The notes below the pieces were generated by a model, which was not told the DNA's origin, did not search any database, and saw only the letters and a program-made list of their open reading frames with translations. A DNA stretch of 30,349 nucleotides from a virus. The position numbers and the translations under genes were made by a program. Shown piece by piece: positions 1 through 30,349 of the stretch (within the stretch, counting starts at the first letter, position 1; each line of letters opens with the position of its first letter). Where the stretch lies: positions 1 to 30,349 of the IMG/VR virus record IMGVR_UViG_3300050033_000296; one strand, written 5' to 3'.

Positions 1-2276
1 AGATAGAGCCCGCACTTGTCGAGGTTCTTGGTGTCCGTCGTGCCCGAGGCGGTGTAGGTGAACTGGACGTAAGCGGTGGCGGCGTTCGACGGCGAGGTCG
101 CCGTCACCGTGGCCTGTGTCCAAGCCACCGCGCTATCGGCCACCGCCGTGCCGGCCGAGGTGCTGATCAGCGTCGGACCGGCGGCGTACCAGGCGATCTG
201 GGCGGTGACATTCTCAGAGGCGAGGCCAGCCCAGTCCGAGAAGAAGGCGGTGTACTGGGTGCTGGGCTGGACCGGGTAGGGCCCGAGCGAGACCACGACG
301 GCACCCGCAGCGCTGGGCGTGACCAGGAGCGAGTTGCCGCCGTCGAGGGCGCGGGTGGCTGACTGCGCCACGGCTGCGTTCGTCGCTGTGGCCGTCCCAA
401 CCCCTGTCTCGAAGCTCGCATCGACGGCGGAGAGGATGTTGTCGGCGCCCTGCACCACCACGATCGCCCGGGCGTTCACCGGGTCCCAGGAAACGCTGAG
501 CGAGGGGGTCGCCGGGAGATCGGCCACCACCGTGGCGGTGCTGTAGACCCAACTCGACGTGAGCGAGCCTGTCTCCGCGACCTGAACGTAGAAGTAGTAG
601 GTGCCCGGCGTGAGCGCCGTGCCCACCTGGACGAGGCTGGCGCTTCCCGACGTGCGCCCGGAGTCCCAGACTGATGTGGACGTCGCCGGGTTGAAGCCTC
701 CCGCTGCGACCTGGGCGGCGGTGAAGACCTTGGCCTCCCAGGCGGTGATGTAGGAGCCGGAGGCCGGCGTCGCCGTCCAGGCGATGAGGGGCTCCGTGGC
801 GCTGCTCGTCCCCGTCGGGCTGTAGACGACGAGAGCGGGGCCAGCCTGAGCGACCAGGGTGAAGTCGCTGGCGAACGGTCCCCGAAGGTTGCCCCCCCCC
901 TCTTGGGAGGCGAAGCTCCAGTTGTAGGTGTGGCCGTCCGAGATCAACGTCGACGACAGCGCTGCCGTGAAGGTGGCTCCCGGGATGGCGCTGTCCGCGT
1001 TCCAGACGACGGTCGACTGGAGGGCGCCGGTCCCGGCGTTGTAGTACGAGTATGAGGTCGCGCCGCTCACCTTGATCCGAAAGGCGTAGGCGTTCTGGTT
1101 CAGGCCGTCCGTGCTGTTGTAGACGGCGGTGAACGTCTCACCGCTGGAGACGTCATGATAGCTGGCGTTGCTGGGGCTTACGAGGGTGGGGGCGTAGGGC
1201 GCCGAGTATACGGAGGGGGTGGTGAAGGACTGGACTGTGCCGTAGACGGTGCCCTGGCTGTTCGATGCGACTATCTGGAAGTAGTAGGTGGTGCTCGGGG
1301 TCAACCCAGTCAGGGGCCAACTCTCACCCGTCGTCCCCGAGAATCCCGTAGCGGTCGTGGTCGTGCAGGGCGAGAGGCCAGCATTCGTCGCCCATCGGAA
1401 GTCGTAGGTGGAGGTTCCACCTCCGTCGGCCGCCAGCCCGTTGTCGCTGACGGTCCCGTTCAGGGTCGCGGTGGTTCCGGTGATCGAACTGGCGGAGCCC
1501 GTCGTCGCACTGGGCGGCAGCGCCAGCGTGGTGAAACCGACCCATGATCCGTAGGTGGTGCCCTCGATGTTCCAAGCCGCAATCTGAAAGGTATAGGTGG
1601 TGTTGGGGGTCAGACCCGTCACCGTTCCCGTGGGCGACACTGAGCCGGTGAAGGAACTCGGCGAGGCGCCCACGGGGGTACCGCCGCAGTTGAAGTCGCA
1701 ATTCGAGGTGGCCGTCCCACCACTAGCGGTGTAGAGACCATTGTCGTTGACGGTGCCGTTCAGGACCGCCGAGGTGGCCGTGATCGAGGTCGCCGTCCCC
1801 GTCGTCGCGCTAGGGGCCGAGACCGGGGCGTAGTTGATATACGCGCCGATGGCCCCGATAGCCGTAAGGCCGCTGAGGCTGGACGGTCCCGCCACGTTCC
1901 CGTCGAGGTAGCCGGTGCCACTGCCGTAGCTAAAGAGCATAGTGCCGGTGGAGGTGCGCCACCAGCCGATGTAGATCTGGGTGCCTGCCGCCAAGCGAAC
2001 GCCGCTAACGGCGAGCGCCTGCCATGCCTGCCCGCCGGTGCTTGGAGACCCGGCACCAAGATAGGCCGTGGCGCTACCGAACAGGATGTTCCCAGATGAG
2101 CCCCAGACGATCCCCTGAAACTCGGTGGTGCCGGAGTAGGCGTCGGCATAGATCACGATGGACGAGACGTAGCCGTCCGCCGGCATCGTGTAGATGGGCG
2201 TGCAGACCTGGGAATGGGTGTTAGAGCCGTACTCCCACCAGCCCGTGAAGGATGGCTGAGAGCCAAGCGTAGCCAT
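1..2276 (-). CDS. Fn3/Ig-like tail protein, C-terminus beyond window
   Basis: The minus-strand frame is open from ATG 2276 to position 1 (758 codons) and leaves the window without a stop, so it is partial. The first ~150 residues form a beta-rich domain with many W, Y and G (starts MATLGSQPSFTGWWEYG). Two similar ~85-residue Fn3/Ig-like modules follow, opening PSATTGTATSIT and PSATTGSASSIT, each with an LNGTV-DNG strand and a closing T-YTF/YYFQI strand. Further beta modules follow (PLIAWTATPASG; PATPSLSVSWDPVNA). Such proteins form tail tips, fibres or baseplate parts that touch the host surface. The start overlaps the stop of the upstream gene as TGATG. Lying just downstream of the tape measure gene supports a distal-tail role. 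The exact structural role is inferred. Confidence 0.8.
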   Translation of the reverse strand, partial: MATLGSQPSFTGWWEYGSNTHSQVCTPIYTMPADGYVSSIVIYADAYSGTTEFQGIVWGSSGNILFGSATAYLGAGSPSTGGQAWQALAVSGVRLAAGTQIYIGWWRTSTGTMLFSYGSGTGYLDGNVAGPSSLSGLTAIGAIGAYINYAPVSAPSATTGTATSITATSAVLNGTVNDNGLYTASGGTATSNCDFNCGGTPVGASPSSFTGSVSPTGTVTGLTPNTTYTFQIAAWNIEGTTYGSWVGFTTLALPPSATTGSASSITGTTATLNGTVSDNGLAADGGGTSTYDFRWATNAGLSPCTTTTATGFSGTTGESWPLTGLTPSTTYYFQIVASNSQGTVYGTVQSFTTPSVYSAPYAPTLVSPSNASYHDVSSGETFTAVYNSTDGLNQNAYAFRIKVSGATSYSYYNAGTGALQSTVVWNADSAIPGATFTAALSSTLISDGHTYNWSFASQEGGGNLRGPFASDFTLVAQAGPALVVYSPTGTSSATEPLIAWTATPASGSYITAWEAKVFTAAQVAAGGFNPATSTSVWDSGRTSGSASLVQVGTALTPGTYYFYVQVAETGSLTSSWVYSTATVVADLPATPSLSVSWDPVNARAIVVVQGADNILSAVDASFETGVGTATATNAAVAQSATRALDGGNSLLVTPSAAGAVVVSLGPYPVQPSTQYTAFFSDWAGLASENVTAQIAWYAAGPTLISTSAGTAVADSAVAWTQATVTATSPSNAATAYVQFTYTASGTTDTKNLDKCGLY

Positions 2277-6589: not shown

Positions 6590-7570
6590 CTAGACGTAGG
6601 TGGTGGAGACCGCGTTGGTCAGGGTCACCTTGACCGGGGAGAAGCCCCCCGAGACGCCGATGTCGGTGGTGTTGGCGATCGCGGTCCCGGTGACGTCGAT
6701 CTCCAGGATGTCCTTGTCAGCCTTGAACGGCGCCGCCGTGAAGGCAACGCTCGTGGAGTGGACCTCGAGGATGCCGCTGGCGCCCTGGGTGAGGGTCAAG
6801 TCCACCGCGGGCTGGGTGTTGTTGAGGTAGTAGCCGAGCATCGTGTCGGCGGCATCGGCCAGACCCGAGAGCTTCCACGAGACGGTCAGCGGACCGATGA
6901 AGATCTCGGAGGGGTTCTGGGTGCCGTCCAGGCCCTTGATCACGGTGACCTTGCGGGTCATGGTCACGGTGGCCTCGGTCACGACGACCGTGGAGGTGCC
7001 GCCGATGGTGCAGGCGCACTGCCAGGCTGCCACCGGGAGGACCCCGGTGTAGGTGGCGGTCGGGTTGGTCTCGTGCGCCGAGAGCAGCGACGTGATCTTC
7101 CCGGTGAACTTGAGCAGGTCCTCGGCCGTGTACTGGAGCTCCACCTCGGTCCACTGGGCGCCGGCGTAGCCGCGGGCGTTGGTGGCGTCGTAGTTGTGGG
7201 TGATGGAGTGCGAGGTCGGCTGGCCCTGACCCGAGTTCAGCACCGCCGCAGTGTGGACGTAGGGACCCACGCCGGTGACCGCCTCATCGCCCAGGACGCC
7301 CGAGATCGCGAAGCCGATGGTGTCCACCCAGACGCCGCCGCCGACCGAGATGTTGGCGGTGCCAACGCCCGGCACCATGCCGAGGTCGGTCACCATCGAG
7401 CCCACCAGGGCCGTGACGGGCAGCTCGGTGATCTTGTCTTCGGGGGTGAAGGAGTCCAAGTGCAGGAACGCCGTCGACGTCAGCCAGGTGCCCTTGACGG
7501 CCTCCTTGGCGATGCCGATCTGTTGGCGAGCTACTGGCAGGGCAGTCGCCGGGTAGGTTATTCCTGGCAT
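6590..7570 (-). CDS. Major tail (tube) protein
   Basis: 326 residues, ATG 7570. The N-terminal ARQQIGIAKEAVKGTWLTST matches the G-KEaxxGT pattern of siphovirus tube proteins. The rest is beta-rich with alternating T/V strands (VTMTRKVTVIKG; ILEIDVTGTAIANTTD), as expected of a tube-forming beta-sandwich. It is directly upstream of the chaperone pair, as in most long-tailed phages, and overlaps the preceding small gene by 13 bp. The 36-bp gap to the chaperone start holds that gene's ribosome-binding site. Confidence 0.85.
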   Translation of the reverse strand: MPGITYPATALPVARQQIGIAKEAVKGTWLTSTAFLHLDSFTPEDKITELPVTALVGSMVTDLGMVPGVGTANISVGGGVWVDTIGFAISGVLGDEAVTGVGPYVHTAAVLNSGQGQPTSHSITHNYDATNARGYAGAQWTEVELQYTAEDLLKFTGKITSLLSAHETNPTATYTGVLPVAAWQCACTIGGTSTVVVTEATVTMTRKVTVIKGLDGTQNPSEIFIGPLTVSWKLSGLADAADTMLGYYLNNTQPAVDLTLTQGASGILEVHSTSVAFTAAPFKADKDILEIDVTGTAIANTTDIGVSGGFSPVKVTLTNAVSTTYV

Positions 7571-10320: not shown

Positions 10321-12045
10321 CTAGTTGTTGATCTGGGTGATCGAGCCCGACCAGGCCGGCGCGTAGTGCACGAGAGCGCCGAACCAGTAGGTGCTGATGT
10401 CCCAGGACATCTGGATGTCGGGCCAGTCGATGGCCATGAACGGCTGGACCTCGCGGTCGATCACCGTGCTGGTCACGCGGCTGTCCGGGATGGGGAGGGT
10501 GAAGCTCTGGACGAGGATGCTGCCAGCGGGCATGTACGGGTGGACCGTGAGGGGCACGTTGTCCTTGCCGGTCGTCTCGTTCTGCATCCCGGTCACCAGA
10601 CCACCGAGGACCACCCCGTTGTCACCGATCTGGGCGGTGAAGCGGTAGTTGGTGGACGAGGTCGTCTTGAGCAGTTCGGAGAGCTGACGACGGATGGACG
10701 CGGTCAGGAAGATCTCGTCCGGGTCCGCCAGGTTGAAGTTCCCGCCGATCCCCTGGCCGTACAGGCCGGCGAAGCACGCCTGAATCTCGACACCCGGAGT
10801 GGTGGTCGAGAGGGCCGCGTTCAGCTGCTTGGTGTAGCCGGAGAGGCTCGGGTTCGCCGCCACGGTCAGCAGCCCATCGTAGGAGTAGGTGCTGGCCGAA
10901 GCGTCCGCGGCGGGAGGCTGGGCGCCGGAGTTCGGGCATCCGCCCGTGCCGCCGCCCGTGAAGTTGATGGTGAAGGCGCCGGCACCCGCCGTCTGCGTCG
11001 AGCCGCAGTACCAGGCGTTCGCGATGCCAGCCGCGGTGCCGGCGAAGACGTCGTAGAAGAGCGCCCCGGCCGAGCCGGTGAAGCTCACGTTGACCACATC
11101 GCCGGTGGTCGCTGAGAGGCCGGTCGAGCCGACCACGGTGGACGCCAGCGAGTCGCCCGCGCCGCTGTTCGCACAGACGTAGACGTACAGGTTGGCGATG
11201 TTGGCGGTGTTGCCGGTCTGGCCGGCCGAAGCCGCCGCAGCGGCCACAGAGACGGCGGTCGGGGCCGCGAGGGCGCCCGAGTAGCCGGACTGGTTGCCGC
11301 GGCCGTAGAGGTGCTCGCGCTCCTTGGCGCCGAGGCTCGACCAGAGCAGCCCGGTGTGGGACAGCTGGCGGGCGTCCTGGAGGCCTTCCATCGCGTAGCC
11401 GATGCCCCAGTCGACCTGGTCAGACAGGCCATGCTCGATCATGAGCACGGAGCCCGACTTGGTCGCGTAGGAGATCTGCGTGCCGCGACGGAGGCTGATC
11501 GGCCCGAACGCCGTCGAGGCGGAGTCCGAACTGAGGCCGGCCATCAGGTTGGGAACGCCCCCCTGGCCGGAGTTCGACCAGCCGGTGACCTGGTCGAAGT
11601 GGTGAGCGGTGCCCTCGGCCGGTCCGGTGGGGATGCGGTCGACGAGCGGGGTCTTGCGGTTGACGAGCAGCTGGACCACGGGGAGCAGGTCGTACGGGAC
11701 CAGCTGGGTGGAGGGGTTGCTGAACGTCCAGGCCTTGGTCAGGTCCGCCTGGGCGGCCTTGGCCGCGTCCAGGGAGCCGCGGATGCTGGCCAGCGCGTCG
11801 GGGGACATCGACTTCTCGACGGCGTCGAGGTCGAGGCCGGCGAACTGGCGCATGGCGTCAGCAGGCCCGGCGCGACGGCCGAGGCTGGCGAACTTGCCAG
11901 CGGTGGGGCGGGGGTAGTCGCCGCGCTGCGACTTCTCGGTGACGCCGGCCCACACCTGCTTGAAGCGCTCGACCGCGGTCGCCTTGTCGGCGGGGGACGA
12001 GTGCGCCGGCACGATGTAGTCCAGCACGTTGCGTGCGGTGGTCAT
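10321..12045 (-). CDS. Major capsid protein with Ig-like insertion
   Basis: 574 residues, ATG 12045 with a GAGGA ribosome-binding site at 7 nt. Residues ~1-110 are helical (AVERFKQVWAGVTEK; ASIRGSLDAAKAAQADL), like an N-terminal arm or delta domain. The HK97-type core begins near 111 (PSTQLVPYDLLPVVQLLV). Residues ~258-384 form an inserted beta domain (PTAVSVAAAAASAG; NLYVYVCANSGAGDSLAS; GALFYDVFAG) of Ig/Fn3 type, rich in T, S, G and A. The core resumes near 385 with SYDGLLTVAANPSLSGY and DPDEIFLTASIRRQLSELL and ends in a beta-rich domain (IQMSWDISTYWFGALVHYAP). Order after the protease/scaffold gene is canonical. The insertion probably projects from the capsid surface. Confidence 0.9.
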   Translation of the reverse strand: MTTARNVLDYIVPAHSSPADKATAVERFKQVWAGVTEKSQRGDYPRPTAGKFASLGRRAGPADAMRQFAGLDLDAVEKSMSPDALASIRGSLDAAKAAQADLTKAWTFSNPSTQLVPYDLLPVVQLLVNRKTPLVDRIPTGPAEGTAHHFDQVTGWSNSGQGGVPNLMAGLSSDSASTAFGPISLRRGTQISYATKSGSVLMIEHGLSDQVDWGIGYAMEGLQDARQLSHTGLLWSSLGAKEREHLYGRGNQSGYSGALAAPTAVSVAAAAASAGQTGNTANIANLYVYVCANSGAGDSLASTVVGSTGLSATTGDVVNVSFTGSAGALFYDVFAGTAAGIANAWYCGSTQTAGAGAFTINFTGGGTGGCPNSGAQPPAADASASTYSYDGLLTVAANPSLSGYTKQLNAALSTTTPGVEIQACFAGLYGQGIGGNFNLADPDEIFLTASIRRQLSELLKTTSSTNYRFTAQIGDNGVVLGGLVTGMQNETTGKDNVPLTVHPYMPAGSILVQSFTLPIPDSRVTSTVIDREVQPFMAIDWPDIQMSWDISTYWFGALVHYAPAWSGSITQINN

Positions 12046-13634: not shown

Positions 13635-16307
13635 TCATTCGGTGCCCGAGGGCACTAGGGCTAGGGCGCATCGGCACCGCGGATGGGCCGGCGGGTTCGG
13701 GTCGCCGCTTCTGAACGGTCGGGTCAGAGGGATCGCCCCCTGAGCCGCATTGGCCACGCATACCGGGCACGCGCCCGGAGCGTCGAGCCACTCCTTGTCC
13801 ATGCCCCCGGTGGCCTTCGCCATCGCCAGCATGGACGCCTCCATCGCCCTGGCTATCTCGGTGCGGGCGATCACTTCCGCCCGCTTCTCGTCGTGCAGTA
13901 TCCCGTCGAGGCGTGCCGTGGTCTGAGCGGTGCTCTCGCCGGCCGCCACGGACGTGGCCAGCTGGTTGCCGATCTCGGTGACCGACGTCTCACTGACCCC
14001 TCGTAGGTCGATGCGCAAATTGGAAAGCGCCTCACCGAGTGCGCCCTGACGGAGCATCTCCTCGGGGAGGGCCGTGCCCGGCATCGCCGCGCTCTCCCAG
14101 CCCATGTCCACCGCAGTGGTGACCGAAGGGGTGAGGGCCGACTCAAGCGCCGCCGCCTGGCTGATGGGGAATCCCAGCGCTTGGAGCGCCCAGTGGAACG
14201 CGGTCCCGACGCCGGTCTTGACCAGCGCCTCGACGGCCTCCAGGAGTGTGCCGGCCGTCCATCCCCCCGCCAGGGCCGCGGTAACGGGGGGAGTGGCCTC
14301 CGCTGCCAGGCGGTCAGCCTCCAGCGTATTCGGCGGCTCAGCGGGGGGAACTACGCCGCCGCTGCCGCCATCGCTTTTGGGGACCGTCGCCACTAAGACC
14401 TTGCAGGCTTCGAGATCGCCGCGCTGGCCCGCTGTATTCAATGCCTTGGCGAGGCTGGGGGTGACTGCGGCGAATTCGAAGTCGCGCCAGGACTTCCCCT
14501 GGCGACGCTGGGCGAAGGTCAGGAACGTCTCGGCCTCATCGGCCACTTGGCTCTTGATGTGGGTGGTGACCTCGCCCTTGGTGGGCGTCTCTCGGGCGGC
14601 GGGAGGCTTGGCTACTGCAGCAGTAGCCTTTGCGCCCGGGGTAGCTTTCCCGGGGACAGTCTGCCCGGTCACCGGGTCCACGGGGGGCGCCGGCTCGGGC
14701 TCGCTGGACCCCTCCATGAACTCCGGGCCGCTGGCGGTCATGACGAACGGCATGTCCGCTTCGGGGAAGCTGTAGAGGCTGTCGCCGTTCTCCGCCCGGA
14801 TGTCGTTCAGCGTCTTCTGGGCGCTGTAGATGCGTACCTGGTCGGTGGTGGCCTGGGCAGCGTCGTCCTCATGGGTGCCGCCGCCGGTGAAGAGCAGGGT
14901 GAGCTCGGGTGGCATCCCGGCGAACCGCCGGAGCATCCCGTTGACCACGTCGACGATCCACTCCTCGAGCGGGCCATCCCCCTCGGTCTCGTCGATGTTC
15001 TGCTCGCCAGCCTGCACGGTGTTGGTGCCGAAGAAGCCGCGAGGGGAGATCACGCCCAGTTGGGTGGGCATCACCGCGTACTTCGAGCCGATCTGCTTGA
15101 TGAGGAACTCGTCGAGGTCGGGCTTGTACTTCTCGGCGAGCTGGGGCGGGAAGACGAAGTCGAAGGTGCCGGGCCAGAGATGGAACTGCTGGCGCGCGAC
15201 GGTGTTGCCCGACATCGCGTCGTTCATGTTCCGTTCCATCTGCTTGCGGTCGGTCTCGTCCCAGGTGGCGTCCTTGGCCATGACCTCAGCCCGGCCGAGC
15301 ACGCCGTGCTCCCACTCCTCCCGCCACCATGCCTGACGCTTCAGCCAGAGGTCGATGGAGGGGAGTGCCTTCTCGGTGGGGGAGGAGCCGAACGGCCAGG
15401 TCCCGGTCGAGCGGATGTCCCGCGGCGCGTAGAACAGCTGGTCCGCGCTGAACTCCTGGTCGTAGTCGGGAGCACTGGTGAACTCGCCCCGGGGGAAGCC
15501 ATACAAAATCTGTTGAAAAGCGGGGTAGGGCGGTGCCGGCCGGTTGCCGTTCTCGTCGAGCAGGGGCTTGATGGTCGAGCCGTCGAGGATCCGGAAGCCG
15601 AGCGGCTGCTGGCCACGCACCCATGCGCCCACGGTGGGGAAGACGGGCCAGATCGTCAGGGCGTCCCAGACCATGTGCTCCTCGGTCAGGTTGCCCAGCC
15701 AGGCGGACCAGTTCTCGCCGTTCTGGCGGTCGGGCTCCTCGAGGATGGCCCGGATACGCTCGATCTCGCCGGAGAGCTTCTGGCGGCCGACGGTCTGGGC
15801 CCGCTGGGCGGACTTGATGCTCTCATCGCCGGCTATGACCGCTGCGGTCGCCTGGGCGGTCAGAGCGATGTCCCAGGTCTTCTCCTGGAGGGAGTGCTTG
15901 CGGATGTCGATGCAGCGGCGGGCGACGTCGCACTGGTCTGCCGCGGCCCGGAGCACCTCGAAGGGGATCGGGCGCTGGTTGGTCAGGCGCAGGTTCCATG
16001 CGATCTCGTACTGGGTGCGGCGAGGAGCCGGGCGCCCCCACGGTCCCGGAGCGTCGATCGGGCGCGGGATCAGCGGGGTAGCCGGACCGAACGGCACCTG
16101 CCCGTCCAGAGGGTTGCGGGGCAGCGGGTTGGTCTGCATCCCCAGGTGGGACGCCAGGGCGATCGCCTGCTGCTGGTTCATGGTCTGCGTCCCGTCAGGC
16201 AGCGTGACGCGCCCCTGGGCGGTCGTGAGCGCGCTGACGGCCTTCTCGACCGCGATCGCGGCGATCTCGGCGACATCTTCGCGCGAACGGCGGGTCCACC
16301 AGGCCAT
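13635..16307 (-). CDS. Portal protein fused to a MuF-type domain
   Basis: About 890 residues from ATG 16307, which overlaps the terminase stop as TGATG; a longer in-frame reading to 16376 lies inside the terminase. Residues ~1-530 are a portal: an N-terminal helical region, YEIAWNLRLTNQRPIPFEVL, GWRILDG-like FRILDGSTIKPLLD, DQLFYAPRDIRSTGTWPFG, and the C-terminal portal stretch QTLND-like AQKTLNDIRAENGDSLYSF. A Pro/Ala-rich linker follows. The last ~150 residues are MuF/SPP1-gp7-like: RAEVIARTEIARAMEAS, EWLDAPGACPVC (C ~847) and PPAHPRCRCALAL near the end. MuF proteins are packaged with the head and sometimes act on ejected DNA. Usually these are two genes. Confidence 0.9.
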   Translation of the reverse strand: MAWWTRRSREDVAEIAAIAVEKAVSALTTAQGRVTLPDGTQTMNQQQAIALASHLGMQTNPLPRNPLDGQVPFGPATPLIPRPIDAPGPWGRPAPRRTQYEIAWNLRLTNQRPIPFEVLRAAADQCDVARRCIDIRKHSLQEKTWDIALTAQATAAVIAGDESIKSAQRAQTVGRQKLSGEIERIRAILEEPDRQNGENWSAWLGNLTEEHMVWDALTIWPVFPTVGAWVRGQQPLGFRILDGSTIKPLLDENGNRPAPPYPAFQQILYGFPRGEFTSAPDYDQEFSADQLFYAPRDIRSTGTWPFGSSPTEKALPSIDLWLKRQAWWREEWEHGVLGRAEVMAKDATWDETDRKQMERNMNDAMSGNTVARQQFHLWPGTFDFVFPPQLAEKYKPDLDEFLIKQIGSKYAVMPTQLGVISPRGFFGTNTVQAGEQNIDETEGDGPLEEWIVDVVNGMLRRFAGMPPELTLLFTGGGTHEDDAAQATTDQVRIYSAQKTLNDIRAENGDSLYSFPEADMPFVMTASGPEFMEGSSEPEPAPPVDPVTGQTVPGKATPGAKATAAVAKPPAARETPTKGEVTTHIKSQVADEAETFLTFAQRRQGKSWRDFEFAAVTPSLAKALNTAGQRGDLEACKVLVATVPKSDGGSGGVVPPAEPPNTLEADRLAAEATPPVTAALAGGWTAGTLLEAVEALVKTGVGTAFHWALQALGFPISQAAALESALTPSVTTAVDMGWESAAMPGTALPEEMLRQGALGEALSNLRIDLRGVSETSVTEIGNQLATSVAAGESTAQTTARLDGILHDEKRAEVIARTEIARAMEASMLAMAKATGGMDKEWLDAPGACPVCVANAAQGAIPLTRPFRSGDPNPPAHPRCRCALALVPSGTE

Positions 16308-17656
16308 CAGCGGTACCCGAACGCGCCGAGGCGAGGCTCGGACCGCTGCGTAGCGCTGGGGATGCTGCGTAGCCAAGCGGCCGTGCTGGAGTTCTCCATC
16401 ACGTCAGTCAGCGCCCAGACGAGCGCGTCCATGCGGTCTGGGGACGTCCCGGCGTCCTGCGTCCATTGCGTCATCTGGTCCTCAAGCTCCCTGTGCGGGC
16501 CGACGTGGTGAACGTGGCCCTGCCGGTAGAGCGTGGCGATCGGCTCGGCGCGGATCACCTTGCCCCGGGTGGCCGAGACGAGCCGCACCGGGACGTGGGG
16601 GTCGACCGAGCGGATGGTGTGCTCGACCATCTCCCCGCCGTAGTTCTTCTCGGCGACGATCCGATCTGCCTTGAACTCGCGATAGGCGGCGATCGCTCGC
16701 TTGGCCCACTCTTCGGGGTGAAGCTGGCCGGAGCGGTCCGCCAGGACGTAGCCGTCGCCGTTGACCCCGCGGCCCGCAGCGACGATGCCGGTCTTGTCCC
16801 GTCCCCCGCCGGCCGGGTCCACCCCGATCACACAGCGGAGCAGCTCGGGGGCCTCGTCCACGCGGAGGGTATCGAGCTCCAGGAGCGTCCAGAGGGCTCC
16901 CTCGACATCGTCGATGAGCTCCCCGAAGATCTCCTGCCGCTCGTACCGGCTGCCAGCGTAGGTGGCCAGGACCTCCTCGGCGAAGGTGGGGGCCAGGTTG
17001 ATTAGGTTGTCATAGGTCGAGCCGGTGCTGAGCCGGGTGGTCGGCCGGCCGATAATCTTGCGGACCAGTGGGCGCGACCGGGGGGTGGTCGTGAAGACCA
17101 CGCGGGGCCGAGGGCCGAGCCGCAGACCGAGGAGGAGCAGGTCGAGCGTCTCTTCCTTCGTCCAGGAACCGACCTCGTCTCCCCAGCAGAACCAGTGCTG
17201 AGGACCGCGCAGCCGCTCTGGCTCGGTGGCGGGGAAGCCCCGAAGTATCGACCCGTTGGTCAGGGTCAGGGTCAGGTCGGTCTTGACCCAGCTCTTGACG
17301 TACTGGCGGGGGATGACGGCCAGGAGGCCACTCTCGCCCTCCACCATCGTCTCCCGGATGTCCGCGTAGGTGGGGCCTACCAGGCCGATGCGGGCCCCAG
17401 GGTACTCGTGCGCCCAATGGGCCACCGTCTCGGCGCCGGTCCGGGTCTTGCCCGTTCCTCGCCCGGCCATGTACAGCCAGGTGAGCCAGTCGCCTTCAGG
17501 CGGTAGCTGCTCCGGCCTCCTCGCCTCCAGCAGGCGCCACTTCGCCCGGCTCCGATCCCACAAGTCGGGGATAGACTTGATCGCCCGGGCCAAGTCGAGG
17601 AGTTCGGATTCGCTCGACGGCCGCGTCGATCTCGGCGTCAACGTCGCGGTCGCCAT
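16307..17656 (-). CDS. terL: Terminase large subunit
   Basis: 449 residues. Walker A is AGRGTGKT (64-71), Walker B ends in WGDE (D160, E161), and the coupling motif region is VVFTTTPRSRPL (~186-197). The nuclease domain has VIGVDPAGGG (D280), RIVAEKNYGG (E336) and DRMDALVWAL (D410), so both ATPase and RNase H-like nuclease sites look intact. It packages DNA into the prohead through the portal encoded immediately downstream. The first ~53 codons overlap the end of the small terminase gene in another frame; conserved sequence around residues 35-62 makes a much later start unlikely. Confidence 0.95.
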   Translation of the reverse strand: MATATLTPRSTRPSSESELLDLARAIKSIPDLWDRSRAKWRLLEARRPEQLPPEGDWLTWLYMAGRGTGKTRTGAETVAHWAHEYPGARIGLVGPTYADIRETMVEGESGLLAVIPRQYVKSWVKTDLTLTLTNGSILRGFPATEPERLRGPQHWFCWGDEVGSWTKEETLDLLLLGLRLGPRPRVVFTTTPRSRPLVRKIIGRPTTRLSTGSTYDNLINLAPTFAEEVLATYAGSRYERQEIFGELIDDVEGALWTLLELDTLRVDEAPELLRCVIGVDPAGGGRDKTGIVAAGRGVNGDGYVLADRSGQLHPEEWAKRAIAAYREFKADRIVAEKNYGGEMVEHTIRSVDPHVPVRLVSATRGKVIRAEPIATLYRQGHVHHVGPHRELEDQMTQWTQDAGTSPDRMDALVWALTDVMENSSTAAWLRSIPSATQRSEPRLGAFGYR

Positions 17657-18083
17657 TGTGTAGGGTGGCCTCCACGTCGAGCCTCTGCCGGTCGATCAAC
17701 GAGCCGTCAAGCTTGGCGATGTCCATCTCGATCTGCCGGAGCTGCCCGTACAACTGCCCGACGTTCAGGCTCTGGTTCCCGGTCGCCTCTAGCCTGGACC
17801 GGATCTCCCGGGCCAATTGGTTCAGGGCGTCGAGATGGATCTGGAGGGCGTCGGCCGCCTCATCCTTCGCCAACTCAATGCCGCGGGATAGGTCTTCCTT
17901 GACCGTGTCCGCGCTGATCTCCAGCGTAGCCGCGATCTCCAGGTAGGTCAGCTTCCGGGCTCGAAGCTCACGGACCTGGCCAATCCGGGCGAGGATAACC
18001 TGATCCTGCCGCCAAGCGATCGTATGGGAGCCGCCCTTCTGGCCGCTGTAGCCACGGGCTCTACCCGTCCGGTGGTTTGCCAT
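17496..18083 (-). CDS. Terminase small subunit-like DNA-binding protein
   Basis: 195 residues, ATG 18083 with a GAGAG ribosome-binding element. An N-terminal basic, Gly-rich tail precedes a helix-turn-helix (LRARKLTYLEIAATLEISAD then VKEDLSRGIEL), then a long helical segment (ALQIHLDALNQLAREIRSRL; QLRQIEMDIAKLDG) likely for oligomerisation. The C-terminus is Pro/Gly/Glu-rich. Small terminases recognise the packaging site and load the large subunit. It overlaps terL by 161 bp in a different frame, which is long for such overlaps. It has its own promoter-like sequence 53 bp upstream. Confidence 0.75.
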   Translation of the reverse strand: MANHRTGRARGYSGQKGGSHTIAWRQDQVILARIGQVRELRARKLTYLEIAATLEISADTVKEDLSRGIELAKDEAADALQIHLDALNQLAREIRSRLEATGNQSLNVGQLYGQLRQIEMDIAKLDGSLIDRQRLDVEATLHNGDRDVDAEIDAAVERIRTPRLGPGDQVYPRLVGSEPGEVAPAGGEEAGAATA

Positions 18084-18134
18084 CTCTCAGGTTAGCCGTG
18101 AGGGCGCAGGGACACGCATCCCAGAATCACCCCG

Positions 18135-18152
18135 AAGGATAGCACGTACGTT
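18135..18152. repeat. 18-bp promoter block, copy 1
   Basis: AAGGATAGCACGTACGTT, identical to 19044-19061. It covers the -10 and the palindrome ACGTACGT, so a regulator bound there could control both units together. Confidence 0.7.
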
Positions 18153-18163: not shown

Positions 18164-18196
18164 ACCGATTCCTTGACGAAGTCAAGAGGACCCCGG

Positions 18197-19036
18197 TCAG
18201 GACTTGTGGAGGTGCGCCGCCAGGAAGCGGTCGGGCCGGAGCCGCGCACCGGCGGTCGAGCCGAGGGCGACCGCTGCGATCAGCAGAGCCCACATCCAGG
18301 GCGACCCTCCGCCACCAGCGGACGGGGGGGTTGTCGCCACCACCGCACCGGACAGCGACCCAACGTTAGACGGCGAGGGCGACGCCACCGGGGTGGCAGT
18401 GGGGCTGGCTGAGGGCGATGGGGACGGAGTGGTGGTCGGGGTGCTGGTCGGGGTGCCAACCGGGAGCGCCGTGCCCGTGGAGGGTGCCGTCTGCCCGCCA
18501 CTCGGGGTAGCGGTCGGACCTGCGGTGGATGTACCCGTCGGCGCGAGGGTTGGGCTAGGGGTTGGGGTTGGCGAGGGGGTGGCAGAGGGAGCCGCGGAGG
18601 GAGTCGCGGTCGGAACCACGCAGTCGTTCGGTGGAGGGACCGCGACCCGGGTGTCGCCGTTCATATCGTAGTGGTTGGGGCCGTCCTGGACGTACTCGGC
18701 CAGTTCGGCGGAGCCACCTGTGGGCCAGTCCAGGTTGGCCGTCCAGAGCACCAGGGTACCCCCCTGAGTGGTCGGCACCGCGAACGTCTGCGTGGAGATG
18801 AGGGCGCCGTTGTCGTCGACCCAGAGCGTGGCTGACAGGACCGCCTCATCGCCGCGGACGATGCCGGTGATCTCCGCCGTGACGGTGGACCCGGTGCAGC
18901 CGGTGGTCACGACGACGGCGGGGTTACTCGGGTCTGAGCCTCCGGCAAGGGCGACGGCCGCACCCCCAATGGTCACGGCGAGAGAGAGGGCCGCCCCCGC
19001 AGCCCAGCGCTTCACTCGGGACACTCCACCCATCAT
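18197..19036 (-). CDS. Secreted, stalked, membrane-anchored surface protein (moron candidate)
   Basis: 279 residues from ATG 19036 (MMGGVSRVKRWAAGAALSLA). The start has basic residues, a hydrophobic core and an Ala-Leu-Ala-Gly end, a signal peptide. Residues ~35-135 form a beta-rich extracellular domain with two Cys (TTGCTGSTV; PNDCVVP) that could pair. About 100 residues of Thr/Pro/Ser/Ala stalk follow (SATPSPTPTPSPTLAPTG). The C-terminus has a membrane span (SPWMWALLIAAVALGSTAG) and an Arg/Lys-rich tail; no LPxTG is seen. It has its own promoter inside a late-strand region and breaks the usual gene order, as lysogeny-expressed cargo does. Possible roles are superinfection exclusion or host-surface change; neither is shown by sequence. 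An upstream in-frame start at 19090 would cross the promoter. Confidence 0.72.
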   Translation of the reverse strand: MMGGVSRVKRWAAGAALSLAVTIGGAAVALAGGSDPSNPAVVVTTGCTGSTVTAEITGIVRGDEAVLSATLWVDDNGALISTQTFAVPTTQGGTLVLWTANLDWPTGGSAELAEYVQDGPNHYDMNGDTRVAVPPPNDCVVPTATPSAAPSATPSPTPTPSPTLAPTGTSTAGPTATPSGGQTAPSTGTALPVGTPTSTPTTTPSPSPSASPTATPVASPSPSNVGSLSGAVVATTPPSAGGGGSPWMWALLIAAVALGSTAGARLRPDRFLAAHLHKS

Positions 19037-19043
19037 CGCGTCA

Positions 19044-19061
19044 AAGGATAGCACGTACGTT
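19044..19061. repeat. 18-bp promoter block, copy 2
   Basis: Same 18 bases as 18135-18152, in the same orientation and the same position relative to the -10 of the surface-protein promoter. Confidence 0.7.
19045..19061 (-). promoter_or_regulatory. Promoter of the surface-protein gene, near-leaderless
   Basis: On the minus strand AACGTACGTGC runs into TATCCT (19050-19045), with TGC forming an extended -10. The predicted start near 19038 is 2 nt before the ATG at 19036, so the transcript would be essentially leaderless. The -35 is weak. The block AAGGATAGCACGTACGTT (19044-19061, plus-strand reading) is identical to 18135-18152. Confidence 0.5.
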
Positions 19062-19098: not shown

Positions 19099-19386
19099 CT
19101 AGGCTCCGTCGAGAGCACGGAGGAAGGCGCCGATCCTATGCGGCAGCACCAGTAGTGGCCCCTTGTGGAATTCGTCGGCCGCCTCCCTCAGCAGCGCCAC
19201 CGCCTCGTCCCGCTGGCGCTCCAGCCCCGCGAGGAGCGGCCACACGTCGGCCACCCGCACGGTGACGACGCGGCTGTGCGCGATCGGCCGAAGCTCGTCG
19301 ACAGTCAGCGGGGTGGGCTTGCTCTTCTCGGCGCGGAGAGCCTCCCCGATGGTTCGCCCCTGGGGGTCGCGGATGCTCTCATCCAT
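19099..19386 (-). CDS. Small protein after a start-associated repeat, unknown
   Basis: 95 residues from ATG 19386 (MDESIRDPQGRTIGEALRAE). The start is fixed by the repeat that ends a few bases upstream and carries GGGAGGAG as ribosome-binding site; a longer in-frame reading to 19497 lacks one. The C-terminal half is helical (LLAGLERQRDEAVALLREAA). Its heptad-like ERQRDEAVALL stretch resembles that of the neighbouring gene at 19379-19732. Function unknown. Confidence 0.62.
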   Translation of the reverse strand: MDESIRDPQGRTIGEALRAEKSKPTPLTVDELRPIAHSRVVTVRVADVWPLLAGLERQRDEAVALLREAADEFHKGPLLVLPHRIGAFLRALDGA

Positions 19387-19732
19387 GTGGCTCCTCCCGA
19401 TCTCTGCTACCCGGCTGGCTGTCAGCGAGGGCGCGGATGAACCTCTCGCGCCTTTCAAGCCAGGCGACCTGGCGCCCACTGAGCACGTCAGCCGCATAGT
19501 CCCCGAGCAGCGCCACCGCCTCGTCGCGCTCCAGTTCCGCGATTCGCCATAGCCGTTCGTAGTGTCCGATCAGCCCGTCCCGCTGGCGCGAGGCTTCAAA
19601 CAGGGCGTCCCGCTGCTCATCCCGTTCCTGGGTGCGCTGGCGGATCGTGGCGAGCAGACGCCGATCGGGGGCGTGATCTTGGCGCTCCAACTCCGCGATC
19701 TCCTCGTCGGTCAGCGGGATGAGATCAAGCAT
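19379..19732 (-). CDS. Helical protein, paralogue of the gene at 29571
   Basis: 117 residues from ATG 19732 (MLDLIPLTDEEIAELERQ). PLTDEEI and LATIRQRTQERDE are shared with the protein at 29571-29792. Its C-terminal SQPGSRDREEPHG resembles the end of the Gam-like protein at 29042-29578 because both genes end in the same DNA repeat. It is almost fully helical and charged (ERDEAVALLGDYAADVLSG), suggesting a coiled coil. It overlaps its neighbours by 8 bp on each side. The ribosome-binding site is weak. Function unknown; the paralogue lies in the early operon on the other strand. Confidence 0.68.
   Translation of the reverse strand: MLDLIPLTDEEIAELERQDHAPDRRLLATIRQRTQERDEQRDALFEASRQRDGLIGHYERLWRIAELERDEAVALLGDYAADVLSGRQVAWLERRERFIRALADSQPGSRDREEPHG
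19389..19418 (-). repeat. Start-associated repeat, minus-strand copy
   Basis: Thirty bases identical to 29536-29565, centred on CCGGGTAGCAGAGATC and ending in GGGAGGAGCC. It encodes the last residues (QPGSRDREEP) of the upstream gene and supplies the ribosome-binding site of the downstream gene. Confidence 0.85.
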
Positions 19733-20162
19733 CACGTTTCCCCCACCTAGCCTTCGCAGCCCTCCTGGCAGATTCACTCCGAGCTTCGGGGGTTAGGTTG
19801 CGAGCGCGAGACTGGCCCCCCTTGCGGCCGAGGGTGATCGCGGTTAGGCCTCCAGGCGGTAGTAGCAGATCGTAGTGATGGCGGCATAGTCCCATGCGGA
19901 TGGTTGCCTTGGCCCCTTCCAGTTCCACGGCGCTCGTGGCCTCTAGCCCCTCGACGAGGGCGTTGGGGCATTCCCGGATCGCACAGAGCCCTTGGGAATT
20001 GCGGAGCACCGGGAGCCCGATGCCTTGGTTTTGGATCTCGCTGACTACTGGTGCCAACGGACCGAACGGGACTCTCTGGGAGCACGTCGGACGGTGGAGC
20101 ACCGTACCGCGCGTCTCTCGGGCTCCGCACTCGGGGCAAGCCTTCGGGGTGGATTGCCTCAC
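19725..20162 (-). CDS. Cys/His-rich DNA-binding-like protein
   Basis: 145 residues from GTG 20162 (VRQSTPKACPECGARE), overlapping the upstream stop as GTGA. CPEC near residue 9 plus a later Cys, then CAIREC and GLCRHHYDLLL, suggest two metal sites. The C-terminus GRKGGQSRARNLTPEARSES followed by ARRAAKARWGK is a basic motif common in phage and host DNA-associated proteins (LTPEAR...ARRAAKARW). A nucleic-acid-binding role is inferred; no nuclease signature is complete. A longer reading to 20390 lies across the upstream gene and is rejected. Confidence 0.65.
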   Translation of the reverse strand: MRQSTPKACPECGARETRGTVLHRPTCSQRVPFGPLAPVVSEIQNQGIGLPVLRNSQGLCAIRECPNALVEGLEATSAVELEGAKATIRMGLCRHHYDLLLPPGGLTAITLGRKGGQSRARNLTPEARSESARRAAKARWGKRDA

Positions 20163-20410
20163 CGGCTCTCTTCCCAGATGGACCGCCATGCCTTCCGGTA
20201 CGGACCGGCGAGGAAGAGCGCCCCGATCACCAACAGGACCTCGTCGATCCCGAAGTCCGGGAACGGGACGGCCTTGATGGCGAACGCGGCGGCGAACATC
20301 CAGCGCAGCGGCTTCGGGAGCCGGGGGTCGGTGGCGAGCGCCTTCCCGAGGCGCATGGTCCTCGCGAAATGCCTGCGGGAATCTGCCCAACGGGTACGGA
20401 GATAATCCAT
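20159..20410 (-). CDS. DUF1232/YkvA-like small membrane protein
   Basis: 83 residues, ATG 20410 with GAAGGG just upstream. After a basic N-terminus (MDYLRTRWADSRRHFARTMR) comes LPKPLRWMFAAAFAIKAVPF then PDFGIDEVLLVIGALFLAG, the P-P-D-(x)-D/E-E pattern of DUF1232-like proteins, with two hydrophobic segments. The family is widespread and of unknown function. It ends in a basic/aromatic tail (PYRKAWRSIWEES). Confidence 0.62.
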   Translation of the reverse strand: MDYLRTRWADSRRHFARTMRLGKALATDPRLPKPLRWMFAAAFAIKAVPFPDFGIDEVLLVIGALFLAGPYRKAWRSIWEESR

Positions 20411-21270: not shown

Positions 21271-21649
21271 CGCCCCGAGGCTACGAGCCACCGGCCGGCC
21301 GGCGCAAGCGCATTGCAGGAACTTCGCAGGCCCGCTACACTTCGAACCCGTGACCTATCGGTGGGGGCGTCGGTACGTTCGCCCCCTACATGCTGCGGAA
21401 GGGACGAAGGGCGGCGGAGAGGCCCTTTGCCAAGAACTCATCCGCCTGACCCCTTCATCCCCGGTCGGACGCTACCACGGTTGCGCCACTCCGGGATACG
21501 GGCACTCCGGCCCGCTACAACCCGGGTACTTCCTCCTGTTGCCCTTTGGGCCAGGGTGCGCCCATACTCACGCCGAGCCACCCGACCGGGGTGGTCGCCC
21601 TTTGCCGGGAAACCCTCCGAGGAGGATCCATTCAGTGCGCGTCGGTGTC
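21271..21649. other. Gene-free stretch beside integrase; likely attachment region
   Basis: About 380 bp with no convincing gene. It contains three copies of GCCCTTTG (21422, 21541, 21597), two copies of GGCCCGCTACA (21329-21339, 21509-21519), an inverted pair CCCCGGTCGG/CCGACCGGGG near 21464 and 21585, and a tRNA-arm-like string at 21341-21356. Clustered short repeats around a core next to an integrase gene are the layout of phage attachment sites. No clear promoter for the leftward gene at 21270 was found. Confidence 0.4.
21341..21356. other. Candidate attP core (tRNA-arm-like)
   Basis: TTCGAACCCGTGACCT; its complement AGGTCACGGGTTCGAA matches the variable-loop, T-stem and T-loop order of many tRNAs. 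The 3' half of the T stem is absent, so it is not a tRNA gene. It may be the region shared with a host tRNA attB. Confidence 0.25.
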
Positions 21650-22684
21650 CTACCTCACATGCCAAGCACGAAGCATCTCCTGATCGCTGACGTGAAGGTA
21701 CCTCTGCATCACCTGGAGATCGGCCCACCCGCCGGCGCGGCGGACGATCTCGGTCGGCACCCCGGCTGCGATGGCACGGGTCGCCCAGGTGTGGCGCAGC
21801 AGATGGGGCCAGACGCGGATCCCCGTCGCCGAACTGAGGCCCGAGACGACGCCCCAGATTGCCCCCGGGGACATGGGCTCGAACTCGCCGGCCACCTTGC
21901 GCTCGCGGAGCCAGAGGTGCCGCTCCCGACTGTCCGGAGCTACGGGTCGATCCCACTCGACGTACTGCTGGACAGCCTGCCAGAGCGGATCGTCCGGCAG
22001 CCCCAGCGGGGTGTAGCGATCCTTGCCGCCTTTCCCCAGGCGCACCCTGACCATGGCTTCCCCAACCTCGCCCGCGAGGTCGTCGAGGGTGACCGAGGCG
22101 CACTCGCTGAGCCGCAGGCCCGTCCCGAGCAGGAAGCGGACGATCATCCGATCCCGCGCGGTGCGCGCAGCTCGGAGGAGCCGCGTCACCTGGGCTTGGC
22201 TGAGGACCTCCGGGAGGGTCTTCGGGACGGTGGGGTTGCGGACCCGGAGGAGGGATGCCTCCTCCTCGGTCGCCCATCCCATCTCGATGCACCAGCGGGC
22301 GAATGCCTTGACCCGGGCAGTGACCGCCAGCAGGGAGCTCGGCTTGAGCCCATCCCGGCGGCCAGTGACCAGGAACTCGATGAGCGTCTCGCGCCCGAGG
22401 CACTCCGGCCAGGGCTCACCACCGCGAGCCTGAGCCAGCCGGGGACCGAGCAGCCAGCGCGCATATCCCCGCAGCGTCTCGGGCGATCGGTTGGCAGCGC
22501 GGCAGTTCTCCAGCCAGGCCTGGACCGCCTCATCCCAACACTTCGGCTTTTGTCCCCGTCCAGGCGCCGATACGACCATCGGCTGCCAACGGGCCGATCG
22601 CTGCACTTGTGCCGCGCTCGCCTCCCCCGGCGTGACGTACATCAGCCTGCCGGCCCTGGCGGTGAGCCAGGACACCGCGCTCAT
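21650..22684 (-). CDS. int: Tyrosine-family integrase
   Basis: 344 residues. An N-terminal SAM-like core-binding domain (CWDEAVQAWLENCRAANRSP then TLRGYARWLLG) is followed by the catalytic domain. R191 in LLGTGLRLSECA, K218 in LGKGGKDRYTPL, H294 and R297 in HLLRHTWATRA, W320 in AGGWADLQ replacing the second His, and Y329 in QRYLHVSD are present, so it looks active. It would integrate and excise the genome at attP, probably in the gap just downstream. The ATG at 22684 has no clear ribosome-binding site; starts at codon 15 (MYVTPGEAS) or 36 are possible. It is divergent from the early replication genes. Confidence 0.93.
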   Translation of the reverse strand: MSAVSWLTARAGRLMYVTPGEASAAQVQRSARWQPMVVSAPGRGQKPKCWDEAVQAWLENCRAANRSPETLRGYARWLLGPRLAQARGGEPWPECLGRETLIEFLVTGRRDGLKPSSLLAVTARVKAFARWCIEMGWATEEEASLLRVRNPTVPKTLPEVLSQAQVTRLLRAARTARDRMIVRFLLGTGLRLSECASVTLDDLAGEVGEAMVRVRLGKGGKDRYTPLGLPDDPLWQAVQQYVEWDRPVAPDSRERHLWLRERKVAGEFEPMSPGAIWGVVSGLSSATGIRVWPHLLRHTWATRAIAAGVPTEIVRRAGGWADLQVMQRYLHVSDQEMLRAWHVR

Positions 22685-29578: not shown

Positions 29579-29792
29579 CGTGGACCCGCTGACCGACGAG
29601 GAGATCACGGAGGTCGAGGCTGAGGCGCTTCTCGGCTTCGTCCGTCGACCTTGGCCCACTAAGGTGACCCGACTTCGGATGCTCGCCACGATCCGCCAGC
29701 GCACCCAGGAGAGGGACGAGGCACGAGAGGTGGTGGCCAAGTGCCCGTACTGCCGCAACCTGGCTCGCTGGACCCAGGAGGAGAAGCCGTGA
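29571..29792 (+). CDS. Paralogue of the gene at 19379, with CxxC
   Basis: 73 residues from ATG 29571 (MADVDPLTDEEITEVEAEAL). Shares PLTDEEI and LATIRQRTQERDE with the 117-residue protein at 19379-19732 on the other strand, but ends in VVAKCPYCRNLARWTQ, where that protein continues helical. Its start follows the same 30-bp repeat that ends its paralogue's gene. Unknown function; a duplicated module is evident. Confidence 0.68.
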   Translation: MADVDPLTDEEITEVEAEALLGFVRRPWPTKVTRLRMLATIRQRTQERDEAREVVAKCPYCRNLARWTQEEKP

Positions 29793-30055
29793 CGACATGC
29801 GCCCACGGTTGCTACGGGATGAACGGCGGGTATCACTGCGGGTGCTGTGCCAGGCTGACTGCCGAGGCCGAGGCAGCTCGACGGCTGCGGGAGGCGGCCT
29901 TGGAGGCGCTGCGACGGTATGACGCCGCCACCACGGGTGCCTTGAGGCTGACCATCGAGGCTCCCGACCTGGCTGTGGCGGCAATAGAAGCTCTCCGGGC
30001 TGCGCTCCTCGCTGATAACAAGCCGGGTAGCAGAGATCGGGAGGAGCAGCCATGA
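29789..30055 (+). CDS. Cys-rich N-terminus, helical protein
   Basis: 88 residues from GTG 29789 (GTGA overlap). MTTCAHGCYGMNGGYHCGCC suggests a tight metal site with four Cys and a His. A long Ala/Glu helix (RLTAEAEAARRLREAALEAL) and a hydrophobic helix (APDLAVAAIEALRAALL) follow. It ends NKPGSRDREEQP, encoded by the repeat at 30021-30047. Unknown function. Confidence 0.62.
   Translation: MTTCAHGCYGMNGGYHCGCCARLTAEAEAARRLREAALEALRRYDAATTGALRLTIEAPDLAVAAIEALRAALLADNKPGSRDREEQP
30021..30047 (+). repeat. Start-associated repeat, copy before 30052
   Basis: Twenty-seven bases identical to the core of the 29536 copy. GGGAGGAG ends 5 nt before ATG 30052. Confidence 0.85.
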
Positions 30056-30349
30056 GCGAGTTCAAGCCCGGAGACGTGGTCGCGGTCAAGGGCCGCATCG
30101 TTGACGAGACGTTCGTGGGCGTCGGTGGCGATGATGGCGAGGAGGATGTCGTTTATCGCAGATGGGCGGACATCGCTCCCTGGGTCTCCCCGGAGCGGAT
30201 CGCCGCCCTGGAGGCGCTCTGGGCGTGGACTGAGGACATGCTGGACTGCGCCGACTGTGAGGACGGGTACTGCAACCGACACCACGAGGAGTTCGTGGGC
30301 GTCTGCCACCGCCTCGCCGCCCTCGCTGACCCACCGGGTAGCAGAGATC
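30052..30349 (+). CDS. Unknown protein, cut by the window end
   Basis: At least 99 residues from ATG 30052 (MSEFKPGDVVAVKGRIVDET), overlapping the previous stop as ATGA. The N-terminus is a small beta-barrel-like segment (PGDVVAVKGRIVDE). The middle has CADCEDGYCNRHHEEFVGVC, a Cys/His cluster fit for zinc. It ends at the window edge in PPGSRD, inside another copy of the start-associated repeat, so the stop and the next gene probably lie just beyond. Confidence 0.65.
   Translation, partial: MSEFKPGDVVAVKGRIVDETFVGVGGDDGEEDVVYRRWADIAPWVSPERIAALEALWAWTEDMLDCADCEDGYCNRHHEEFVGVCHRLAALADPPGSRD
30334..30349 (+). repeat. Start-associated repeat, copy cut by the window end
   Basis: CCGGGTAGCAGAGATC matches the other three copies; the ribosome-binding half would be outside the window. 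Confidence 0.75.

What the first reader, a model, noticed from the sequence alone, without database searches (positions are those of the whole stretch)
18197..19036. Moron-like stalked surface protein next to the terminase
Signal peptide, beta domain, Thr/Pro/Ser stalk, membrane span and its own near-leaderless promoter mark a protein shown on the host surface during lysogeny. It might block superinfection or alter adhesion.
Basis: inference. Interest (0 to 1): 0.6.

Follow-up and report, generated by a model that had tools for sequence, protein, structure and literature searches.

The report
Phage-encoded stalked membrane surface protein
Next to its DNA-packaging genes, a temperate phage carries an extra gene for a protein that is probably displayed on the host cell surface on a long flexible stalk; it has no detectable relatives, and it shares its control element with the packaging gene, so the idea that it is made mainly in dormantly infected cells is doubtful.

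Summary
The gene is real. On the minus strand it encodes a 272-aa protein: Sec-type signal peptide, ~110-aa domain with two cysteines, ~104-aa Pro/Thr/Ser/Ala-rich stalk, one weak C-terminal membrane span and a basic 16-aa tail. Phage codon usage is strong over the domain. Three details need correcting. The likelier start is GTG 19015, with a good Shine-Dalgarno, so the gene is not near-leaderless. The beta fold rests on a low-confidence model (pLDDT 46). The promoter is not private: an exact 18-nt element, AACGTACGTGCTATCCTT, occurs only twice in the window, upstream of this gene and of the neighbouring gene that I call terS (terminase small subunit), and similarity continues 26 nt into both leaders. 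The gene is thus a 909-nt unit bounded by duplicated promoter/leader copies, probably co-controlled with packaging, which argues against lysogeny-specific expression. No homologue was found in phage, plasmid, viral-contig or bacterial-genome collections, Pfam, PHROGs or NCBIfam. The one close kin phage with readable upstream DNA (L005) lacks the gene. Best reading: an accessory, membrane-anchored, stalked surface protein working like a superinfection-exclusion or surface-masking factor. Anatomy well supported, function inferred. An ordinary kind of phage accessory gene with an orphan head domain.

The parts
18197..19015 (-). surface-protein gene, 272 aa, probable GTG start (alternatives ATG 19036 and 19033)
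18944..19015 (-). signal peptide, residues 1-24, cleavage ALA|GG
   Evidence: hydropathy and AxA motif, no dedicated predictor run
18617..18943 (-). exported head domain, residues 25-133, two Cys (40 and 132), net charge -11, probably beta
18305..18616 (-). Pro/Thr/Ser/Ala-rich stalk, residues 134-237
18248..18304 (-). C-terminal membrane span, residues 238-256 (borderline hydropathy)
18200..18247 (-). basic cytoplasmic tail, 16 aa, no LPXTG before the span
19024..19030 (-). Shine-Dalgarno GGTGGAG for GTG 19015
19044..19061 (-). control element copy 1, AACGTACGTGCTATCCTT (TGC-TATCCT extended -10-like)
18135..18152 (-). control element copy 2, upstream of the gene taken as terS
19018..19061 (-). 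44-nt promoter/leader repeat, copy 1
   Evidence: (D7, 80%)
18109..18152 (-). 44-nt promoter/leader repeat, copy 2
   Evidence: (D7, 80%)
18171..18187 (-). stem-loop CTTGAC-TTC-GTCAAG about 10 nt after the stop codon, no T-run; chance occurrence not excluded
17496..18083 (-). probable terminase small subunit (HTH; about 50% identical to terS-position proteins in L004 and L084)
16307..17656 (-). terminase large subunit

Best explanation
The gene encodes a Sec-exported, single-span (N-out/C-in) membrane protein whose ~110-residue, probably disulfide-closed domain is held away from the host membrane by an extended ~104-residue Pro/Thr/Ser stalk (about 30 nm if fully extended, enough to cross a thick wall). 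It is an accessory cassette between the small non-structural genes and the terminase operon, carrying a copy of the promoter/leader of the neighbouring terminase gene, and so is expected to be transcribed together with packaging genes. Most likely job: changing the infected cell's surface so that other phages (or the progeny) adsorb or inject less well, i.e. superinfection exclusion or surface masking. Shown by sequence: the ORF, its codon usage, the segment order, the duplicated control element, absence from close kin L005. Inferred: export, topology, fold, timing, function.
For: Segment anatomy; coding signal in this frame only; exact 18-nt element at both genes and nowhere else in the window, extended by 17/26 matches downstream (P 1.9e-4 for random pairs) but 1/10 upstream; only 1 of 40 simulated windows has any direct 18-mer repeat; L005, terL 64% identical, has RusA-like and HTH genes before terS and no such protein; no stalked type-I membrane protein upstream of terL in the other kin loci examined; the phage is temperate (integrase, Cro/CI-like HTH). 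Analogy: Ltp of phage TP-J34 is a membrane-tethered protein with lipid anchor, Ser-rich spacer and active domain that blocks DNA injection (PMC3952083).
Against: No homologue of any part of the protein, so nothing ties it to exclusion; the membrane span is only moderately hydrophobic; no -35 and no consensus sigma-70 promoter; the host is unknown; timing rests on the promoter copy alone, and terS itself is assigned from position and distant matches.
Confidence: 0.4

Rival explanations
1. True lysogenic-conversion moron: the protein is made in the dormant lysogen and benefits the host (exclusion, adhesion).
For: Accessory position, temperate phage, promoter copy in front, stem-loop just after the stop, absent from kin L005.
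Against: The promoter/leader is shared with the adjacent terminase gene, normally silent in lysogens; G+C (72% for the gene, 70% for the cassette, against 68%) and codon usage do not mark it as foreign; a chance 6-bp stem near a stop is not rare.
Confidence: 0.25
2. Late lysis or envelope-disruption factor of the LysZ/LysF1b sort: a single-span protein that helps break the wall at the end of infection.
For: Shared control with a packaging gene implies late timing; one-span lysis proteins are common in phages of Actinobacteria (PMC13056207).
Against: No lysis gene was recognised in the stretch next to it; LysZ is proposed N-in/C-out and LysF1b has an N-terminal span with a highly charged cytoplasmic domain, whereas this protein is predicted N-out/C-in with a long outside stalk; the record is incomplete and the host unknown.
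Confidence: 0.15
3. The 18-nt repeats are not promoters but binding sites for terminase or a repressor (cos/pac-type or operator), and the surface gene is simply transcribed from upstream.
For: ACGTACGT is palindromic; one copy lies just upstream of terS where packaging sites often are; no -35 is conserved.
Against: Copies are 909 nt apart in the same orientation, each ahead of a start codon, each with an extended -10-like TGCTATCCT, and similarity continues only downstream into the leader.
Confidence: 0.15
4. Non-functional or chance ORF in G+C-rich DNA.
For: Long spurious ORFs are common here; no homologues.
Against: Frame-specific codon usage over domain and tail, ordered secretion/stalk/anchor segments, promoter copy and Shine-Dalgarno.
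Confidence: 0.05

Closest known systems
Ltp-type superinfection-exclusion lipoproteins (Streptococcus phage TP-J34)
   [quoted passage not shown] accessory gene
   Different: Ltp is lipid-anchored, lies in the lysogeny module and is transcribed in the prophage; this protein has a C-terminal membrane span, no lipobox cysteine, a different domain, and lies beside the terminase
LPXTG/sortase wall-anchored stalked proteins of Gram-positive bacteria
   Same: signal peptide, head domain, Pro/Thr/Ser stalk, C-terminal hydrophobic span and basic tail
   Different: no LPXTG-like motif just before the span; the only similar string, LAPTG, is in mid-stalk about 75 residues away
Phage morons (lysogenic-conversion genes)
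   Same: accessory gene placed between conserved modules with its own promoter copy
   Different: promoter shared with the terminase gene, no clear terminator, no compositional mark of foreign origin, no evidence of prophage expression
LysZ / LysF1b one-span lysis proteins of phages of Actinobacteria
   Same: single membrane span, plausible late timing
   Different: topology, size, stalk and genomic setting differ

Membership tests
Moron | accessory gene inserted between conserved genes, absent from close kin | tested here: met
   L005 has terS and terL without it; no similar gene in the other loci examined; only one close kin has readable upstream DNA
Moron | own promoter independent of the flanking operon | tested here: inconclusive
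   promoter-like element present but identical to that of the adjacent terS
Moron | own terminator | tested here: inconclusive
   no intrinsic terminator; stem-loop without T-run after the stop
Moron | expressed from the prophage | not testable with these tools
   needs RNA from a lysogen
Ltp-type Sie lipoprotein | lipobox with cysteine at the cleavage site | tested here: not met
   cysteines only at residues 40 and 132; site reads ALA|GG
Ltp-type Sie lipoprotein | homology to the Ltp domain | tested here: not met
   no Pfam or NCBIfam match at all; only a chance-level PHROGs match in the signal-peptide region
Sortase-anchored protein | LPXTG-like motif directly before the span | tested here: not met
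   sequence
LysZ-type lysis protein | N-in/C-out topology and setting among lysis genes | tested here: not met
   signal peptide at N terminus and span at C terminus; neighbours not recognised as lysis genes; definition from PMC13056207

The most novel reading that the evidence does not exclude
An orphan head domain displayed on a membrane-anchored stalk under the same control as the packaging genes, i.e. a surface exclusion factor deployed late in the lytic cycle (protecting the burst or blocking rivals or re-adsorption) and acquired by duplicating the terminase promoter/leader.
Probability: 0.2. Interest if true: 0.5.

Novelty: new member of a known kind. Interest (0 to 1): 0.25.

Why it matters
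If true, it adds a sequence-orphan surface protein to the list of phage-encoded host-surface modifiers and gives an example of an accessory gene entering a phage by duplicating the promoter and leader of its neighbour, which puts a surface factor under packaging-gene control rather than lysogenic control. It is otherwise an ordinary accessory gene of an uncultured phage.

Tried and rejected
Homologue searches with the whole protein: viral contigs, genome contigs, phages, plasmids, 39 kin records, all ORFs of fetched loci: nothing. The contig searches need near-exact peptide words, so distant relatives could be missed. Domain libraries: Pfam, PHROGs (one E 0.009 match limited to the signal-peptide region, rejected), NCBIfam, PADLOC (E 0.03 match to the stalk, rejected as composition), PDB sequences. 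Single-sequence AlphaFold2 gave pLDDT 45.6 (29) and Foldseek nothing under E 0.5 (58): not used. Exact search of the 18-nt element in viral contigs: none (19). Search for more kin with terS (37), major capsid candidate (38), integrase (62) and the RBS-bearing repeat (61): only remote kin or none. Host could not be identified: terL gave only 40-46% matches in a Caulobacteraceae and a Rhodoferax MAG (22). Considered sortase anchoring because of LAPTG in the stalk: rejected, wrong place. A tRNA remnant at the putative attP could not be confirmed with Rfam.

Full report
What is there. The window is a whole 30,349-base IMG/VR record that may itself be a fragment of the phage, 68% G+C. It carries a tyrosine integrase (21650-22684, -), a CI/Cro-like regulator (25650-25889, -), the terminase large subunit (16307-17656, -), a portal protein (13635-16376, -) and a tail tube protein (6590-7570, -), with replication and accessory genes rightwards from 22765. 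The ORF at 10321-12045 is probably the major capsid protein (PHROG of unknown function plus a weak major-head match). It is therefore a temperate tailed phage of an unidentified host. The gene of the finding lies on the minus strand immediately before the gene I take as terS.

The protein. Reading from the likelier start GTG 19015 gives 272 residues: signal peptide (1-24, n-region KR, cleavage ALA|GG), head domain (25-133, net charge -11, two cysteines at 40 and 132 that could close it), stalk (134-237, 63% P/T/S), span (238-256, best hydropathy 1.52) and a basic tail. The upstream ATG 19036 would make the message almost leaderless, but GTG 19015 has GGTGGAG 8 nt away and yields the better signal peptide. 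Codon usage agrees with phage genes over the domain (+0.316 per codon; other frames negative) and over the tail; the stalk is dominated by composition. The domain's beta character is suggested by a low-confidence single-sequence model only, and its fold matches nothing.

The control element. AACGTACGTGCTATCCTT occurs exactly twice within three mismatches in the window, at 19061-19044 and 18152-18135, both on the minus strand and both upstream of a gene start. Similarity continues for 26 nt downstream (17/26, P 1.9e-4 against random pairs) and stops at once upstream; the repeat finder reports the pair as a 44-nt repeat at 80%. The sequence has an extended -10-like TGC-TATCCT but no shared -35, and consensus scans find no sigma-70 promoter. 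The simplest reading is a duplicated promoter and leader, which makes the surface gene a 909-nt unit bounded by direct repeats; recombination between them would remove it cleanly and leave terS with one promoter. The element is absent from other viral contigs as an exact string and was not found in the loci fetched by then.

Comparison with kin. Terminase relatives at 63-78% identity exist (L002-L005, L056), but only L005 has readable DNA upstream of terS; there, RusA-like and HTH genes precede terS and no exported protein is seen. In the remaining loci examined (terL mostly 40-55% identical) the only ORFs within 4.5 kb upstream of terL with hydrophobic segments near both ends are two small proteins without a stalk. 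L084 carries a terS relative but a different neighbourhood. The gene is thus accessory and lineage-specific as far as these data go.

Interpretation. Anatomy and position fit a surface-displayed accessory protein. Function is not shown. By anatomy it works like a tethered exclusion factor such as Ltp (anchor, spacer, active domain; PMC3952083), but it is not a member of that family: no lipobox, no homology. A lysis role is less likely because topology and setting differ from LysZ and LysF1b (PMC13056207). I put the exclusion/masking reading at 0.4 and lysogenic conversion at 0.25.

Caveats. The PHROGs match of the terS candidate is to an 'RNase E' labelled family and weak HTH families; it is called terS from position and from about 50% identity to the proteins in the same position in L004 and L084. 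Homology searches of contig collections used near-exact peptide words and would miss distant relatives. No signal-peptide or topology predictor was available; segments come from hydropathy and motif reading.

Noticed in passing
29540-29564 (+), 30023-30047 (+), 30334-30349 (+, cut by the record end), 19414-19390 (-): Exact repeat CCGGGTAGCAGAGATCGGGAGGAGC that encodes the last residues (PGSRDREEP) of one small gene and carries the Shine-Dalgarno of the next; resembles in placement the start-associated sequences of cluster K mycobacteriophages (PMC3203893) but differs in sequence. Not found in other viral contigs. The record may end at 30349 because assembly broke in this repeat.
   Followed up: partly
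28171-28968 (+): Pentapeptide-repeat protein with highly uniform 15-nt DNA repeats; similarity to HetL and Qnr/MfpA families below their cut-offs, possibly a DNA mimic. The long ORF 27655-29235 on the other strand looks like its antisense shadow.
   Followed up: partly
21340-21362 (-): Beside the integrase, GATAGGTCACGGGTTCGAA looks like the T-arm of a tRNA gene and may be the attP core; a GGGGGCG...CGCCCCC hairpin lies just before it. Rfam found no match.
   Followed up: partly
19099-19777 (-) and 29571-30055 (+): Small genes with related text (PLTDEEI...LATIRQRTQERDE) occur on both arms in opposite orientations, partly duplicated (18-nt exact repeats at 19190/19506).
   Followed up: no
20159-20410 (-): 83-aa protein with hydrophobic segments (AFAIKAVPFPDFGIDEVLLVIGALFLAG), without Pfam or PHROGs match; possible small membrane protein.
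   Followed up: no
3-2276 (-): Tail-end protein with fibronectin type III domains, cut by the record end.
   Followed up: no
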